Shown: in pieces, positions 50,430-63,999 of the stretch
How positions within the stretch are numbered: position 1 is the stretch's first letter
How the letters are laid out: each line of letters begins with the position of its first letter
Source: Methanosarcina acetivorans C2A
GTDB lineage: Archaea; Halobacteriota; Methanosarcinia; Methanosarcinales; Methanosarcinaceae
Assembly: GCF_000007345.1 (NCBI RefSeq)
Contig: NC_003552.1
Span: forward strand, 2,852,001 to 2,916,000
Reading direction: 5' to 3'
Length of the DNA stretch: 64,000 nucleotides
Translations under genes and position numbers: made by a program
The notes under the pieces: model-generated
Told to the model about the DNA's origin: nothing
Database searches by the model: none
What the model saw: only the letters and a program-made list of their open reading frames with translations

Positions 50430-51443
50430 TTATTCTAATGGTATTTCAAAAAGAGCCGGATACTCCTCTTTCAATGGTATCAGAAGTTCTTCGTCCAGTT
50501 TTGCGTTATGAAGTGTTTTCGTTTTAGAAAGCTGGTCAATTGATAAATTATGGGCAGCTATAAGTTTAGTCTCCTCAAGGTTAGCTTCTTTAAGATTAGC
50601 GTCTTTAAGGTTAGTCTTTTTAAGGTTAGTCTTTTTAAGGTTAGCCTCTTTAAGGTCAGCTTTTATAAGATTAGCTTTTATAAGATTCGCCTTTGTCAAG
50701 TCAACTCCTTGAAGGTTGGCTCCTTTTAGATTTGCATTAATAAATATAGCTTCTTCAAGATTAGCTCCTTCAAGATTAGCTTTTTTAAGTTTAGCCTCTT
50801 CAAGATTAGCTTTTTTCAGGTTAGTTGCTTTAAGGTTTGCTTCTTTAAACTTGGCTCCATAAAGATTAGCTTCACAAAGGTTAGCTCCTTCAAGTTTAGT
50901 CTCTTTTAGGGTGGCTTTTATAATGTTAGCTCCTTTGAGATTAGCCTTTTCAAGGTCTGCTTCGCAAAGGTTAGCTTCTTGAAGGTCAGCTCCTTCGAGG
51001 TCAGCCCCTTTGAGGTTAGCCTTTTCAAGGTCTGCTTCGCAAAGGTTAGCTCCCTGAAGGTCAACTTTCTGGAGGTTAGTCTCTTGAAGGTCAGCTCTTA
51101 GAAGGATAGCCTCTTTAAAATTAGCTCCCATAAGATTAGCTCCTTGGAGGTTAGCTCCTATAAGGTCAGCTCCACAAAGGTTAGCGCCACAAAGATTAGC
51201 TTCTTGAAGATCGGCTCCAAAGAGATTAGCTCCCTGAAGATCAGCCTCCTGAAGGTTAGCTCCATAAAGGTTAGCCATTTGAAGGACAGCTCCCATCAGC
51301 GTAGCTTTTTCAAGGTTTGCCTCTTGAAGATTAAATCCAAATAGATTAGCTCCTTGAAGGTTAACCTCTTGAAGGTTAGCTCCCTGAGAATTAGCCTCAA
51401 AAAGATCAGCTTCCTGAACACGTTTTTTCTCAGAAATAGTCAT
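50430..51443 (-). CDS. Pentapeptide repeat protein
   Basis: 337 residues, of which about 15-300 are A(N/D)L-x-x repeats (for example LQGANLFGADLQEANLCGAN), enough for a long right-handed quadrilateral beta-helix of about 14 coils. The C-terminus (LSIDQLSKTKTLHNAKLDEE) is a common cap of such proteins. It has no signal or membrane segment. The target of pentapeptide-repeat proteins varies (some mimic DNA and bind gyrase); nothing here points to one. ATG 51443 has no strong ribosome binding site nearby. The gene stands alone in accessory DNA. Confidence 0.9.
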   Translation of the reverse strand: MTISEKKRVQEADLFEANSQGANLQEVNLQGANLFGFNLQEANLEKATLMGAVLQMANLYGANLQEADLQGANLFGADLQEANLCGANLCGADLIGANLQGANLMGANFKEAILLRADLQETNLQKVDLQGANLCEADLEKANLKGADLEGADLQEANLCEADLEKANLKGANIIKATLKETKLEGANLCEANLYGAKFKEANLKATNLKKANLEEAKLKKANLEGANLEEAIFINANLKGANLQGVDLTKANLIKANLIKADLKEANLKKTNLKKTNLKDANLKEANLEETKLIAAHNLSIDQLSKTKTLHNAKLDEELLIPLKEEYPALFEIPLE

Positions 51444-56248: not shown

Positions 56249-56338
56249 TACAAATGAGTTAGACTGTTCTTCATTAATCTTTATATTATTCTGTACAAAT
56301 GAGTTAGACTGTTCTTCATTAATCTTTATATTATTCTG
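56249..56338 (+). repeat. Perfect 45-bp tandem duplication
   Basis: The 45-base unit starting TACAAATGAGTTAGACTG (56249-56293) is repeated exactly at 56294-56338. It lies just outside the IS5-type element. The remaining bases to 56646 hold no gene and include the helicase promoter. Confidence 0.95.
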
Positions 56339-56646
56339 GCAATGCCGCAAGGCTCGCTTCTAAAGGACCTATTTCTATTTCTTGTTATCCTAAGAATTTA
56401 ATTTCATATACACCTTAGAAACTGAAAATTTGAAACTCTCATAAGTCTCAATATTTTTCATGAATATATATAAAATACTGGTCAAAATAAATAAAAAGAA
56501 AAACTCTAATAAACTATGTGATCTGACTGAATTTGGCGGTTAAAAATCCTGAATAAGCAGGCATTTTTCTTCGAAAAGAGCCTATTTTTTATGGATGTTT
56601 CGCTTTCTGGCACGCAAAATAAAGTAAACTGTCTTAGGGTATTTCC

Positions 56647-59600
56647 ATGTTAGAAGAACTCCTCACAACCCTCACTTCCAGGCAAAGAGATGCAGTTAAA
56701 CATGTTTCAGGCCCCCTGTTGATTCTTGCAGGGGCAGGTACAGGTAAGACCACAACAATCACTGGTAAAATTGCTTGCATGATCAAAGTACGTGGAATTA
56801 AGCCGGAAAAAATTCTTGCCCTTACTTTCTCAAGGGAAGCTGCCAGAAATATGGAAAAGAAAATTTCTGAACTTCTGGGGCAGGGGACCAATGTAAAGGT
56901 GAGTACTTTTCACTCTTTCTGTGCCGAATTGATAAGAGATAATTCTGAAAAGTGCGGGGTCTCGGAGCAATTTACTATTTTTGAGGAAATCGATACAGCT
57001 ATCCTGATTTATAAGGAACTGGGAATAACTTCGAGAAATGCTACTTTATATTCCAGCACAATCGCAAAGGCAAAAGACCTGAACATTTCTATTGATAAAT
57101 TCAACGATTATCTTAAAACAAAAAAGGAATCGCTACTTATTTTTGCTGAAGAAAGTATATTTGAGCAATTCTATACCGAGTGTAAGATCAACCTGAACAC
57201 GTTTCATTTAAAGGACAAAACGCAGCAAAAAACCCTGAAAGATGAAAAGAAAAAATGGCAGGAATTTATTGGACTTTATGATGAATACCGTAAATATACT
57301 GATTTCATCCACGCCTGGGAAACCTATGAAGAGAGAAAGAAAACCCTAAATTGCCTTGATTACGGGGACCTTAACAGGATTGCCCTTGATTTCCTTAACA
57401 CCTATGGCACGGCAGAGTTGAATGATACCTATACCCACATTATTGTTGACGAGTTTCAGGACACAAATTACGTGCAGTTCGAACTTATCAAGCACCTGAC
57501 TGCAGGAGAGCAAAATATTACAGTGGTTGCGGATGCAAACCAGAGCATCTATGCCTTTCGGGGAGCCTACTCAAACAATATTGAGGAATTCAAAAAGCAG
57601 TTCGGGATTTCAGAAAAAGACGTTTTATCCCTTGATACGAGTTTCAGGTCAACAAATAAGATCTTAAGGGTTGCTCACAGGCTGATTTCACATAACTATC
57701 CTGAAGATCGAAAAAGCGAGTGTCTCCTCCTCAAAAACTGCGATGCCAACGAGGGCAAAAATGTAGTCGTCCAGGAAACAAAGGATGAGGGGGAAGAGGC
57801 AAGAAAAATTGCCGAACAGATCGAATCCTATATCAAAAAGGGCATTCCCCTGAAAGAAATTGCAGTCCTTTACCGGACCCATACCCAGGGAAGACAGATC
57901 CGGCAGGTTCTACAGCGGCGCGAAATCCCCGTGCTTGTGAAAGATGATGCGGATTATCTGAAACAGCCCGAAATCAAGACCGTACTTTCCTATCTCTATG
58001 TACTGAATAACCTCAATGACCCCACTCCCAGAGGAACCGAGGCATGGTGGCGGCTTTTTCATTACAATAACAGTCTCGAAGACAGTGATTCCGTTCGGAT
58101 AGGAGAGTACGTTAAGAAAAACAAAATTTCTTTTCAGGAAGCCATCTACCACCGTCTTGACAAGATAGGGTTAAGTGAAAACGGGTGCATTACCGTTAAA
58201 AATGTAAAGAAAACAATCATGGTCCTCAGTGAGAAAAAAGTGCTGGACGTATCCGAGCTCCTGCTTGAGATTTACGAGCTTAGCGGAATTGTAAGGCATC
58301 TTTCCCGGCTGGATACCATGAAAACCAGGGAAGCTTTCTTGAACCTCCGAAACCTGCACGAAATGGCAAAGCATTTTGAGCAGTTTCATAACAGGGAGCT
58401 TTTTGGCTTCATCGATTACCTTGAGGTTCTTGACGAGATGGGCGGCAACCCGCACCTGCAAGGATCACGGAAGAAGATGCGGTAAGCCTGATGAGCATCC
58501 ACGCAGCAAAAGGACTCGAATTCAGAGTTGTTTTTGTAACCAATATGGCAAAGGATAAGTTCCCTCTTTTAAGGGGTGGGCAAGATTTTCTGATTCCGCT
58601 GGAAATGATGGAACAGTACCGTGACCTTTTCTCAGCGAAGTTAAGTGAAGCAGAGCTTGAGAAGGCAATAAAGGAGCGGAAAAAAGAAATCAGATTCGAA
58701 GAAGAACGCAGGCTCTGTTACGTGGCCTTTACGAGGGCAAAAGAAGACCTCATACTTACGCGTTCTCAGGAATATGGCGGCAAAGAGCGGGAACCATCCG
58801 AGTTTTTAATGGAAATCGGATACGACCACTGGAGAGACCTGGATATTGCTGCAGAAGGGGGTACAGCCGGCAGTGTGGAAAAAGAGTTCATCTTTGATGA
58901 GCTGAACCTGTCTTATCGCAGGGATCTTGAGGTTAAGACTGCCGGCCTTGTAAAGGACAACGAACTTGAGCGGGAGAAAAATCGGTGTATACAACTGCTT
59001 ATTGAATCCCTCGATAAGGACCTTGAGGAAGCCGTACACTACCTGATGGTATACAGAGCCCTCAGGGATGGAGACTGCGGAAATTATCTCAAGGAAATTC
59101 AGCAAAAATGGAGCCTGATAGACCCTGCTATGAAAGCAGGAGAGATCCTATCAAAAATGAAGACCAAAAGTAATGGATTAAGGTTTAATCCGGAAACCTT
59201 TAGTTTCAGCTTTTCCGCTTTGAAGGTATATGAAACCTGTCCGAAACAGTATGAATTGCAAGAAATCCTGCGCATGCCAAGCCGGAAGAACGCAGACTCC
59301 ACAGGCGCCATGACAAAGGGGAGTTTCGTACATAAGGTACTTGAAACCGCAGTTAAAGAAAGGGTTGCAGAAAAGCGGGCACTATATGAGATAGCTGAAA
59401 CTCTTCATAAAAAGCCCGAATGGATGTATGCAGATCTTGAATCTACCCTTCCTCTTTTTGAAGTATTCTGGCTCCGAAACAAAGACCGGATTTCGAATAA
59501 TCTCATGGTTGAGAAGTGGTTTTCAGTCATTATAGACGGCTTCGTTTTCAAGGGTATTATTGATAGAATTGATTTGCTTGACCCCTCCAAAAAAGAGGTT

Positions 59601-59954
59601 GAGATCATCGATTACAAGACCGGGAAGTATGATGTGAATCCAGAAGACCGTTCAAGGCAGCTCCTGCTCTACGCAAAAGGTTTTGAACACATGTATCCCG
59701 GATACACGGCGAAAAAGCTTACATTTGACATGCTGGCTATGGAAAAACCCAGGAGTTTTGAGCTGCAGGAGAACGGAGAGTACAGAGGTACTGAAGGCAG
59801 AGTAAGTCCACTTGATAGAGAAGCAATAGATTCTATGCTGGTGACTGCACGAAGGATTGCTTATGATTATGAGCATGAGTTTGAAAAGACCGCGGATCTG
59901 GAAGTCTGCAAGGAATGCGAGTTCAGACTATACTGTGATGGAGTAGATCTATGA
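56647..59954 (+). pseudogene. UvrD-type helicase with Fe-S PD-(D/E)XK nuclease domain, split by one frameshift
   Basis: Two frames, 56647-58485 and 58491-59954, form one protein of about 1100 residues. Helicase motifs: Walker A GAGTGKTTTI (about 28-37), VDEFQDTN (motif II), VVADANQSIYAFRGA (III), DTSFRST (IV), then after the shift SIHAAKGLEFRVVF (V) and LCYVAFTRAKEDLIL (VI). The C-terminal nuclease has KGSFVHKVLE and EIIDYKTGKY (D...ExxxYK-type site). Four Cys (YETCPKQYE and CKECEFRLYC) give an AddB/Cas4-like 4Fe-4S site. The frame breaks at about 58450: AACCCGCACC, where AACCCGGCACC would give PAPARITEEDAVSLMSIHAA. All motifs are otherwise intact, so a sequencing error or a very recent mutation is likely. 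A role in DNA end processing or defence is inferred. Confidence 0.85.
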
Positions 59955-59981
59955 AAGATATTGGAAGCTGGAGCCGGTAGA

Positions 59982-60896
59982 ATGACTTTTTCCGAAATAC
60001 ACAGTAAGCTGACAACTGTAGATTCAGAGGACTTGCTTACATCCGATATTTTCGGGTGTTGCTCTTTTTTAAACTACAATGATCTCCTTGAGCATGTTTT
60101 AAGGGAATCTGTGCATTTCAATTCTAAGGATAATCTCTGTATTCCTAAAACTGTGATTTCGGAAGAATATCTCTTCTGGCCCAGGTTTCGTACAGGAAGA
60201 TCTCAAACGGAACCTGACGTATTGATAATGCTCAGACACCCGGGAAACCAATGTACACTTGTTTTAATCGAAGCAAAATTCAATTCTGATAAGTCCTCTG
60301 AGGCTGATTACACATCAGAAGATGTGACTGACCAGCTGGCCAGGGAGCTAATGATTATTGAGAATCAGGGAGTATGTGGCCAGAGTCTTTCCCTGGAGGG
60401 GTTTGAGATCGCGTCAAAAGCTCTCATCTACGTAACCGCACATGATGTTATCCCTGAAAAGGCGCTTGAAGCTTCTTCTTTTGAATTTTTTGAGAAGACA
60501 AGATGTCTCGAGAATGCAAGTTATGAAGATGCATCTGAACTTCCCCTCTACTGGTTGCCCTGGTGGAAGATTGAACAACTCATATCTAGAAACAACTTTT
60601 TTAGTGCTGAAGAAACCGCAAAAGACAGGATTATAAAACATGTCCAGGAAGTGTTGAGGGTAAAGAAGCTCTGCAGGTTTTATGGATTGAATCCCTTAAA
60701 CTTCAACTCAATTGCATATTCCTATTCATCTACAGTTAAAGCTCGGTTCGAATCTGATAGGTATGCAAAGTCTTACACTTTTGATACAATGTTTCCTAAA
60801 ATCCCATTCCGATATCAAATTTCTGGAAAAGAAAGGAGCTACAATTTCGGACTGGTAATTCCTAAAATCTGTTCCAATTATCAACTGGAGGAATAA
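59982..60896 (+). CDS. Candidate PD-(D/E)XK nuclease in the helicase operon
   Basis: 304 residues from ATG 59982 (GGAG 9 bases upstream; the frame is open to 59961). The core QTEPDVLIML ... TLVLIEAKFNSDKSS (about 78-107) has the order PD-(x)n-ExK of PD-(D/E)XK nucleases; the rest is mixed alpha/beta. The protein family is not known to me. It starts 27 bases after the helicase-nuclease stop codon and ends 2 bases before the next start, so the three are one operon. Role inferred: DNA cleavage or binding together with the helicase. Confidence 0.65.
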   Translation: MTFSEIHSKLTTVDSEDLLTSDIFGCCSFLNYNDLLEHVLRESVHFNSKDNLCIPKTVISEEYLFWPRFRTGRSQTEPDVLIMLRHPGNQCTLVLIEAKFNSDKSSEADYTSEDVTDQLARELMIIENQGVCGQSLSLEGFEIASKALIYVTAHDVIPEKALEASSFEFFEKTRCLENASYEDASELPLYWLPWWKIEQLISRNNFFSAEETAKDRIIKHVQEVLRVKKLCRFYGLNPLNFNSIAYSYSSTVKARFESDRYAKSYTFDTMFPKIPFRYQISGKERSYNFGLVIPKICSNYQLEE

Positions 60897-60898
60897 AT

Positions 60899-61531
60899 AT
60901 GAACAGCTCGGAATTTTCTGAAAAGCTGGATCAATCTTTTATAAATATTACTTCTTTTTTTCAGGAGGTTGCATCCCTTTTGAGGGATTGTGACCGCCTC
61001 ATGGGAGAAGAAGGGTACACGACTTTCAATGGGAATACAGCTGTATATGAACAGAGTAGATCGGTACTTAATCCAGAAGCTTGGTTTCCGGCATATCTTA
61101 GTAGGGCTTATGTATCTGAAGAAGAGGCAGAGGAAAGATCCTTTAATCGTGTCCAATTCATAAGTTTGTATCTCAGATACGGGGAAGGAGGTTGCCATGA
61201 TGTTAAAATGATAGGCAATATCCCACTTCTCGTAGCTGGAATAATAATCCCAGCGAATCCTAAATCATTCAGATTTGAAGGCTGGCTAACAAAAAGGTGG
61301 TTCTGGGTTGAAGAATCTGAGAAAATTAATGCTTTGAGTGGAGATATTCCGAAAATCAGAGTTTTCGATGTCAAAAAAGGAGAGTACAACAACTCAAAGT
61401 CAATAAAAACATTTGCATATCCGCTTGAACAGGTTCAGGGAACAGCTGATTTGAAAAGTAAAATAATTGAAAAGCTGCTAGAAACTACAGAAAACAATCC
61501 GGATACAGACGATCCTGAAATTCTGGCGTAA
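60899..61531 (+). CDS. Unknown partner protein of the helicase operon
   Basis: 210 residues, soluble, with SFINITSFFQEVASLLRDCD near the N-terminus and WFPAYLSRAYVSEEEAEERS and FEGWLTKRWFWVEE further on. GGAGG (60885-60890) is inside the 3' end of the previous gene and 2 bases separate stop and start, so translational coupling is likely. No domain recognised. The pairing with a PD-(D/E)XK candidate and a helicase-nuclease is the only clue to its role. Confidence 0.65.
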   Translation: MNSSEFSEKLDQSFINITSFFQEVASLLRDCDRLMGEEGYTTFNGNTAVYEQSRSVLNPEAWFPAYLSRAYVSEEEAEERSFNRVQFISLYLRYGEGGCHDVKMIGNIPLLVAGIIIPANPKSFRFEGWLTKRWFWVEESEKINALSGDIPKIRVFDVKKGEYNNSKSIKTFAYPLEQVQGTADLKSKIIEKLLETTENNPDTDDPEILA

Positions 61532-61776: not shown

Positions 61777-63999
61777 TTACACCGCATCAAGGTCTACAAC
61801 CCGAGCTTCCGGGAACCTTCCTGCAAGCATCTCTACGGTTTCGGGATGGCAGGTGAAATAAAAGAGCTGGTTGCCCGGGACAAGGTCCTTTATGGCTTCA
61901 CAGGTGCTTTTGCAGCGTTCGGGGTCGAAGTTCACCAGCACGTCATCAAATACGATGGGAAGGGATTCCGAGTGCCTCCCGAATTCCCTGATAAAGCCGA
62001 AACGCAGGGAGAGATAAAGCTGTTCGGCTGTTCCCCGGCTGAGTTCCTGGACGGTCTTCTGGCGGCCTTCCCGGTCTTCAACGTAGATTTCGGAAGAGTT
62101 AAGCGGGGAATAAATCCGCGTGTACCTGCCTGCGGTAATTTTTGTGAAAAAAGTCTGAGCTTCCACAATAACTGCAGGCTGCCTCTCCTTTTCATAGACT
62201 TCAATGGCTTTGGCAAGGACTTTCCGGGCCAGGACCAGGGATGCCCATTTCCTTGACTTTTCGTGAAGGTCTTCAAGCAGGCTTTCTTGCATTACCCTTG
62301 CCAGGGAACCTTCACTTCCGTGTTCGAGCTGTTCTATCTGGTTTCCTATCGCTCCGCGTCTGTCCAGGTTCTCGGAGGTCTCCTGTTCAAGGGTTTCCAG
62401 GCATTCCTCCAGCTTGCGGTTTTCTTCTTCCAGGCCCAGGGGATCGGAGGCTTGCAGTTCTTCTACGAAAAGCTCATACTTTTTCCCGTCACCGGAAACC
62501 CTCCTTATCTGCTGTTCAGCTTCCCTCACCCTGTTTTCGAGCTCAGTTCGCTGAGCCCAGTGCCGTGCATTTTCACGGAACTCATCTTCCGTTGCTGCGG
62601 AACCGGACTCAAGAAGGTCTGCAAGCTCTTTTTCAGCTGCTTCAGACTTTTCCCGGGCTGCCTGAAGTTCTATCTCGAGTTCTTTTGATCTTGTTTTCAG
62701 CTGCTGCAGGCTCCTTGCCTCCTCGGATGCTTCTTCAAGGTCCGAACGGAGCTTTTCAACCTGGGTATCGAAAGAAAGTCCGGAAAACGGACGTTCGCAT
62801 TCCTGCAGGACTCCGGCCACCTTTGCTTCATAGGCTTCTATCGAAGTTTTGCCGGAAGCTATCAGTTCCTCAAGGTTCCGGATCGCCCGCTGCCTGTCAA
62901 AACATCTTCCGATTATCGAAAATATTTCAAGCACGCTTTCCACGGAAAGCGAGGGATCAAGCCCGTAAGTTCCAAGCCAGCTGGTCCACTTTTCGGAAAG
63001 AGCATCCCTTTGCGTTCTTTCCTCAAGGAGCCGGGCTTCGAGATCTTCTTTTTTGTGCTCAAGGCTTTCGGATTCAAGTTCAAGAGTCCTCATTCTTTCA
63101 GCCTGGTTAAATGCAAAACTTACGTCCTCCCTGAGCTTTTCTATTTCACCGTCGAGTTTGATTCCCGAAACAGATCTTTCGCAGGCTTCCAGAACGCTAA
63201 GGGCTTCTTCTTCGTACTTTTTAACAGTAGCTTCCCTGAACTTTACCTGTTTTTCCAGTTCTTTGACATTTTTTTGCTTTTCCAGGCAGGCTTTGATCGC
63301 GGAAAGGAGGTCAAGCACATGCTCGGGAGAAAGTTCCGGGTCGAGTCCTGAAGAAAGAAGCCATTCTTTCCATTCCTGGCGAACCTCTTCCTGTCCATCT
63401 TCTCCGGTTTTCAGCTTACCTTCAAGTTCCTTGTAAGCTGCATCTAACTTATCCAGCTTCTTCCGGAGCTTGTCCTTTCCCTGGCGCAGTTCCCCGGCAG
63501 CTTTCAAATCAAGCAGAACCCTCTGCAGTTCATCGGCTTTCTGCTCCCGTATCGAGGGCTCGGGGATGTCTTCAAACCCACACTTTTTTGCCCGGGTTTT
63601 CATGTCTTCTTTCAGGGCGGCAATCTCTCCGGACAGATTTTCCTTTGATTCCTGAGCTTTCTGTTTCCGGGCTTCGGTTCCTTTCAGGTGCTTCTCGCCG
63701 GCAGGAGGACTTGACGGCTGACTTGAGGGCTTTTTCCTAGCTTTCAGGAAGTATATGGCAGAAGTAGCAAAAAGGAGGAAAAATATGCCAAGTCCGGGGA
63801 GCAGGGCGTCGTTTATGTACTCGTAAGCTAGGCCTATACTGCCTGCAAGCAGGAGCATTCCTGCAGGCCAGAGGGGAAGCCCTTCCTCATGTTCGGTTTC
63901 CCGGGACCTGAAGGCTGCAAAAAGCATCTCTTCCTTTTCCAGGTCTTTTTCCAGGTTTTTGAGTTCGCTTTCCTTTTCCCTGAGGAGAGGCTGCTTCAC
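61777..63999 (-). CDS. YhaN/SbcC-like SMC-type ATPase, C-terminal 740 residues (cut by window edge)
   Basis: Open to the window end, so the N-terminus with Walker A is missing. Visible are two transmembrane helices (WPAGMLLLAGSIGLAYEY and LPGLGIFFLLFATSAIYFL), a very long coiled coil (about 90-560 of this part) with two similar halves, and the C-terminal ATPase lobe with signature motif LSRGTAEQLYLSLRFG, Walker B LPIVFDDVLVNFDP and the D-loop/switch FYFTCHPETVEML. Membrane hairpin plus SMC-like ATPase is typical of YhaN, which works with an SbcD-like nuclease in bacteria. Convergent with the helicase operon. Confidence 0.85.
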   Translation of the reverse strand: MKQPLLREKESELKNLEKDLEKEEMLFAAFRSRETEHEEGLPLWPAGMLLLAGSIGLAYEYINDALLPGLGIFFLLFATSAIYFLKARKKPSSQPSSPPAGEKHLKGTEARKQKAQESKENLSGEIAALKEDMKTRAKKCGFEDIPEPSIREQKADELQRVLLDLKAAGELRQGKDKLRKKLDKLDAAYKELEGKLKTGEDGQEEVRQEWKEWLLSSGLDPELSPEHVLDLLSAIKACLEKQKNVKELEKQVKFREATVKKYEEEALSVLEACERSVSGIKLDGEIEKLREDVSFAFNQAERMRTLELESESLEHKKEDLEARLLEERTQRDALSEKWTSWLGTYGLDPSLSVESVLEIFSIIGRCFDRQRAIRNLEELIASGKTSIEAYEAKVAGVLQECERPFSGLSFDTQVEKLRSDLEEASEEARSLQQLKTRSKELEIELQAAREKSEAAEKELADLLESGSAATEDEFRENARHWAQRTELENRVREAEQQIRRVSGDGKKYELFVEELQASDPLGLEEENRKLEECLETLEQETSENLDRRGAIGNQIEQLEHGSEGSLARVMQESLLEDLHEKSRKWASLVLARKVLAKAIEVYEKERQPAVIVEAQTFFTKITAGRYTRIYSPLNSSEIYVEDREGRQKTVQELSRGTAEQLYLSLRFGFIREFGRHSESLPIVFDDVLVNFDPERCKSTCEAIKDLVPGNQLFYFTCHPETVEMLAGRFPEARVVDLDAV

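What the first reader, a model, noticed from the sequence alone, without database searches (positions are those of the whole stretch)
56647..61531. Possible undescribed DNA-processing or defence operon
A UvrD helicase fused to an Fe-S PD-(D/E)XK nuclease is followed, 27 and 2 bases apart, by a second PD-(D/E)XK candidate (PD...EAK) and an unknown 210-residue protein, facing a YhaN-type SMC ATPase. Tight spacing suggests co-function. I do not know this four-part set as a named system.
Basis: inference. Interest (0 to 1): 0.6.

Follow-up and report, generated by a model that had tools for sequence, protein, structure and literature searches.

The report
Two-gene nuclease cassette behind a helicase
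In a methane-producing archaeon, two small genes that always travel together (a DNA-cutting enzyme and an unknown helper) sit behind a DNA-unwinding gene in a virus-defence neighbourhood; relatives show the pair is a self-contained unit and the helicase locus a place where different defence genes are plugged in, so this is not one fixed four-part machine.

Summary

The 304-residue (A) and 210-residue (B) proteins form a genuine two-gene module. They occur together in all 10 Methanosarcinaceae genomes that carry a full copy (of 112 searched), and distant homologues are paired on a Niallia plasmid. A is a PD-(D/E)XK nuclease with weak similarity to PADLOC's unvalidated candidate PDC-M15A. B matches no library.

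The four-part reading fails. YhaN/YhaO is a separate convergent unit. Five of the 10 pair-bearing genomes lack the helicase. The helicase stands in front of other cassettes (DdmDE, McrBC, Wadjet, type III restriction, PbeA-like, TmtA) and, outside the family, mostly beside non-defence genes. Yet helicase-A-B is a recurrent order, intact in two helicase subfamilies and as remnants in three Methanosarcina genomes, often near BREX.

Most likely A-B is a swappable nuclease defence cassette and the helicase-nuclease locus a plug-in site, perhaps also degrading DNA that cassettes cut. Function is inferred, not shown.

The parts
56647..58485 (+). N-terminal part of a UvrD/REP helicase-nuclease gene, ended by a frame change
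   Evidence: PF00580 4.4e-65; orthologues in relatives are single open frames through this point
58434..58485 (+). stretch in which the reading frame of the helicase gene changes (both frames open here)
   Evidence: frame 1 ends at 58485 while the second frame is open from 58434; protein comparison places the change near 58450
58491..59954 (+). C-terminal part of the same gene: helicase motifs plus PD-(D/E)XK nuclease domain with four cysteines
   Evidence: PF13361, PF12705 1.5e-27; cysteines listed
59982..60896 (+). gene A: 304-aa PD-(D/E)XK nuclease, PDC-M15A-like
   Evidence: PADLOC PDC-M15A 6.3e-8; invariant E-P-D/E-x-K/Q-L; fold neighbours almost all PD-(D/E)XK nucleases; dN/dS 0.21
60899..61531 (+). 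gene B: 210-aa partner protein of unknown family, always behind A
   Evidence: paired with A in all 10 genomes holding a full copy; no Pfam, NCBIfam, PADLOC or PHROGs match; dN/dS 0.13
61777..63999 (-). 3' part of a YhaN-type SMC ATPase gene (runs out of the window); conserved flank, not part of the module
   Evidence: also flanks the locus in G081, G083 and G094; weak LmuB similarity 2.7e-12

Best explanation
A-B is a self-contained two-gene defence cassette: A is a PD-(D/E)XK endonuclease that cuts invading DNA, and B is a small obligate partner that folds, restrains or activates A (shown: paired occurrence and conserved catalytic motif; inferred: activity and role of B). The cassette was installed behind a RecB-like UvrD-nuclease gene, a locus that in Methanosarcinaceae repeatedly receives DNA-attacking defence cassettes, often near BREX. 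Where the helicase is intact, the likely division of labour is cut and chew: the cassette makes the break and the helicase-nuclease degrades from the ends (inferred). In this genome the helicase frame is broken, so A-B either works alone, or relies on a split or residual helicase, or the frame change is a sequencing error.
For: A and B are found together in 10 of 112 family genomes, in the same order, mostly with few or overlapping bases between them; in two draft genomes the pair is only split by a contig end. Profile searches in both directions link the divergent A and B groups and the Niallia plasmid pair (B 5.1e-8, A 7.3e-14). Purifying selection on both. PDC-M15A match. A's fold neighbours are FokI, LmuA, Nt.BspD6I, Avs4, Can2, Shedu and Cap4. 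Defence context: BREX genes beside the locus. Cassette exchange: 13 of 41 helicase loci have a recognised defence gene as first co-directional downstream gene; detached helicase tails lie next to cassettes in G094, G035 and G045; 60-base A remnants follow the helicase in G081 and G083.
Against: No activity data exist. PDC-M15 itself is an unvalidated candidate, and B does not match PDC-M15B. In Methanolobus the pair lies outside any defence island recognisable here. Model confidence for A is low (pLDDT 45). Outside the family the helicase has mostly ordinary neighbours, so the plug-in habit may be local. The cut-and-chew step rests on analogy with RecBCD, not on data here.
Confidence: 0.6

Rival explanations
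1. Helicase-A-B is one three-part defence system: the helicase-nuclease unwinds and degrades, A cuts, B couples them. Copies without the helicase use another host helicase.
For: Same order with 21-39 base gaps in G037 with a different helicase subfamily; same order in G000; remnants show it was ancestral in G081, G083 and G094. In 4 of the 5 genomes holding both, they lie within about 6.5 kb on one strand.
Against: No co-occurrence at genome level (helicase in 5 of 10 pair genomes, about 40 of 102 others). Helicase used in front of many other cassettes. Helicase broken in this genome while A and B are conserved.
Confidence: 0.2
2. A-B is a toxin-antitoxin or stabilisation pair: A a nuclease toxin, B a chaperone-like antitoxin, kept because its loss is harmful.
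For: Two small tightly spaced genes, patchy distribution, a plasmid-borne homologue; model of B resembles type III secretion chaperones and YbjN (Z 5-7).
Against: Nuclease gene precedes the partner, whereas antitoxins often come first (general knowledge); clean losses in G081 and G083; chaperone-like score is at background level for this method.
Confidence: 0.17
3. The genes serve DNA repair rather than defence.
For: Helicase-nuclease is RecB/AddA-like and often sits among ordinary genes outside the family; YhaN/YhaO nearby is SbcCD-like (inference from sequence).
Against: Patchy distribution of A-B (10 of 112), PDC-M15A similarity, BREX and other defence cassettes at the same site.
Confidence: 0.1

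Closest known systems
PADLOC candidate PDC-M15 (A+B), one of the PDC set from a guilt-by-embedding screen; unvalidated
   Same: nuclease A matches the PDC-M15A profiles (6.3e-8, residues 21-116); partner genes of about the same length (PDC-M15B model 211 positions, B 210 aa)
   Different: B gives no match to PDC-M15B or any other PADLOC model; the A match covers only the N-terminal third
RecB/AddA/AdnB-type helicase-nucleases
   Same: UvrD core plus PD-(D/E)XK domain with four cysteines
   Different: single polypeptide of about 1020-1100 aa; far below every NCBIfam equivalog cut-off; no AddB partner seen; frame broken here
BREX
   Same: BREX core genes (BrxB, BrxC, PglX, PglZ, BrxL) beside the locus in this genome and others
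   Different: pair and helicase occur with and without BREX; not BREX components
Lamassu LmuA, Cap4, Avs4, Shedu nuclease domains
   Same: PD-(D/E)XK fold neighbours of A (Z 5-7)
   Different: no sensor, cyclic-nucleotide or SMC domain attached to A

Membership tests
PDC-M15 | nuclease subunit matches PDC-M15A | tested here: met
   E 6.3e-8, 30.7 bits, profile positions 29-123 of 243; also G029, G094, G110, G037, G007 and Niallia
PDC-M15 | second subunit matches PDC-M15B | tested here: not met
   no match of PDLC04460 in this genome at E 1 or in 393 genomes at E 0.001 (that search had no positive control); no PDC-M15B match for 7 B proteins at E 10
PD-(D/E)XK nuclease superfamily (gene A) | conserved acidic/lysine catalytic set on the alpha-beta-beta-beta-alpha-beta core | tested here: met
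   invariant E-P-D, E-x-K, Q-L in the first alignment; E-x-D, E-x-K, Q-L kept across 7 diverged members; core order in the model (low confidence); fold neighbours
PD-(D/E)XK nuclease superfamily (gene A) | metal-dependent DNA cleavage | not testable with these tools
   needs purified protein
Type III secretion chaperone / YbjN (TY-chaperone) fold (gene B) | matching fold | tested here: inconclusive
   best Z 7.0 to the FP domain of Fbxo7 and 5-6.7 to several T3S chaperones and YbjN; method background is 7-8; no Pfam match
Gabija | GajB helicase paired with a GajA OLD nuclease | tested here: not met
   GajB profiles hit only the common UvrD core; the protein has a fused PDDEXK domain, and A and B match no GajA profile
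BREX component | present with BREX core genes across BREX loci | tested here: not met
   BREX without the pair in G082, G083, G053, G031, G040, G044, G059; pair without BREX genes in the stretches read from G047, G063, G065, G110
AddA/RecB equivalogs (helicase) | score above the curated cut-off | tested here: not met
   best NCBIfam scores 294.8 (PcrA, cut-off 911) and 128.8 (AddA, cut-off 708), scored on the broken halves

The most novel reading that the evidence does not exclude
The 3' end of this RecB-like helicase-nuclease gene is a recombination anchor where DNA-attacking defence cassettes (A-B, DdmDE, McrBC, Wadjet, type III restriction, PbeA-like, TmtA) are exchanged between archaea, leaving detached helicase tails behind; the helicase is a shared degradation engine for whatever cutter is plugged in behind it.
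Probability: 0.3. Interest if true: 0.65.

Novelty: new variant of a known kind. Interest (0 to 1): 0.45.

Why it matters
It defines an apparently undescribed two-gene nuclease module, with a partner protein of no known family, in a genetically tractable archaeon. It also points to a helicase-nuclease locus as a modular plug-in site for defence cassettes in methanogens, which would explain how unrelated DNA-cutting systems come to share one degradation enzyme and would give a handle for finding further cassettes.

Tried and rejected
Viral contigs: three scans with A and B alignments found no relatives. Plasmids: the window A and B find nothing, only the G110 A finds one Niallia plasmid. PDB by sequence: nothing for A; for B only designed helical proteins matching the long helix. 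Foldseek for B: no significant match, antibody chains on top, discarded as noise. A weak PbeC match of one B protein (E 0.024) was judged chance. Pyrrolysine read-through (TAG) was considered for the helicase break and rejected: the frame changes and the stop is TAA. No paper in the library names PDC-M15. Genome-level co-occurrence of helicase and pair was tested and not seen (5 of 10 versus about 40 of 102).

Full report
What is in the window. The genome holding the window is a single 5,751,492-base contig; PDC-M15A rings among the named controls only in Methanosarcina acetivorans, so the window is taken to be that species (inference). The region reads, left to right on the + strand: a UvrD helicase part (56647-58485), a second helicase part with a PD-(D/E)XK domain (58491-59954), gene A (59982-60896, 304 aa) and gene B (60899-61531, 210 aa), then on the - strand a YhaN-type SMC ATPase whose stop is 245 bases away.

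The helicase is broken. The two parts lie in different frames that overlap in 58434-58485. In four Methanosarcina relatives (G081, G082, G083, G094) the gene is one open frame of 1101-1103 codons and reads straight through this point. Both halves show strong purifying selection in every comparison that includes this genome (dN/dS 0.09-0.15 against the near relatives), so the lesion is recent, or is a sequencing error; nothing here tells which.

A and B are a pair. A search with profiles of the diverged families finds A and B together in 10 of 112 Methanosarcinaceae genomes, plus a B fragment in one more. In G007 and G051 the pair is split only by contig ends, in the orientation expected for A-B. 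The groups are diverged (about 20% identity between extremes), but profile searches in both directions, with other neighbourhood proteins and shuffled sequences as background, link them: the G000-type B model finds the G037 type at 3e-5 and the reverse at 1e-4, and the joint model finds the Niallia plasmid B at 5.1e-8; A gives 4.3e-14 and 7.3e-14. The Niallia pair is annotated as two overlapping hypothetical proteins. A and B are conserved at the protein level against the nearest relative (dN/dS 0.21 and 0.13).

What A and B are. A has the PD-(D/E)XK signature, a weak PADLOC PDC-M15A match, and a low-confidence model (pLDDT 45) whose nearest solved folds are almost all PD-(D/E)XK enzymes such as FokI, LmuA, Nt.BspD6I, Avs4, Can2, Shedu and Cap4. 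B has no family match. Its model is fair (pLDDT 70, pTM 0.72): one long N-terminal helix, a sheet and a C-terminal helix; the nearest solved folds are the FP domain and type III secretion chaperones/YbjN at Z 5-7, which is at the level expected by chance for this method. Such chaperone folds have been predicted in other conflict systems (PMC9503650), so it is a lead, not a finding.

Is the helicase part of it? For: the order helicase-A-B is present here and in G037, where the helicase belongs to another subfamily (about 25% identity over the C-terminal part) and the gaps are 21 and 39 bases. In G081 and G083 the first 60 bases or so of A follow the helicase, so A-B was there and was lost. In G094 a DdmD-DdmE-138-aa cassette lies between an intact helicase and A-B, and 26 codons of a helicase end stand directly before A; over the last 39 bases this orphan end is closer to the helicase of this genome (3 differences) than to G094's own (8), though over 78 bases it is equally far from both. 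Against: the helicase is absent from 5 of the 10 genomes with the pair and present in about 40 of the 102 without it. Three Methanolobus genomes carry the pair alone.

What the helicase locus is. In 41 helicase loci of the family, 13 have a recognised defence gene as the first downstream gene on the same strand: A-B (2), DdmD (2), McrBC genes (2), Wadjet JetA, an HKD-Snf2 protein before a type III restriction system (2), PbeA-like (2), TmtA and PDC-S02. Fourteen have BREX genes in the stretch read. Orphan helicase tails were found in G094, G035 and G045, with a weak case in G008; the G035 tail keeps 70 codons. Twenty loci outside the family show mostly ordinary neighbours, with a BREX-like operon in one and TmtA-like genes in another. 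So the gene looks like an ordinary helicase-nuclease that in this family sits in defence islands and whose 3' end is where cassettes come and go. The control for chance is weak: no matched set of other genes was examined.

YhaN/YhaO. It flanks the locus in G000, G081, G083 and G094, on the opposite strand, and is missing from that place in G082. It has a weak LmuB match (2.7e-12). It belongs to the island, not to the module.

Mechanism. Shown: pairing, conserved catalytic motif, selection, defence neighbourhood, cassette turnover. Inferred: A cuts invading DNA; B keeps A folded, inactive or targeted; a RecB-like enzyme, where intact, digests the broken DNA, as RecBCD loads on and degrades from double-strand breaks in bacteria (PMC12904381). 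That division of labour would account for DNA-attacking cassettes collecting behind this gene, but simple co-location in a defence island accounts for it too.

Novelty. PDC-M15 exists as an unvalidated candidate in PADLOC and is not named in the papers held. The B partner and the helicase-led plug-in site do not appear in the libraries searched, which cannot exclude descriptions elsewhere. Rated as a new variant of a known kind.

Noticed in passing
L043:5697-11678 (G094, Methanosarcina sp. DH2): DdmD (5.8e-51) and DdmE (5.8e-5) with a third 138-aa gene behind them; G039 (L081:9178-14711) has a related DdmD-DdmE pair behind its helicase.
   Followed up: partly
L102:12834-13043 (G035) and L116:9055-9147 (G045): Detached 3' ends of the helicase gene: in G035 beyond McrBC-like genes, in G045 between the intact helicase and a PDC-S02 gene.
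   Followed up: partly
L130:416-1339 (G051): A PDC-S18 nuclease gene (4.3e-147) stands 28 bases upstream of A instead of the helicase.
   Followed up: no
L050:485-14744 (G082): Helicase flanked by a Wadjet JetC3-type gene upstream and McrBC-like genes downstream, then BREX genes: a dense defence island.
   Followed up: no
56254-56342: A direct repeat of about 45 bases, two copies head to tail, upstream of the helicase; read by eye only.
   Followed up: no
61777-63999 (continues in L042:8777-12679): The YhaN-type ATPase has a weak similarity to Lamassu LmuB (2.7e-12).
   Followed up: no
50430-51443: Pentapeptide-repeat protein (PF00805 4.6e-90).
   Followed up: no
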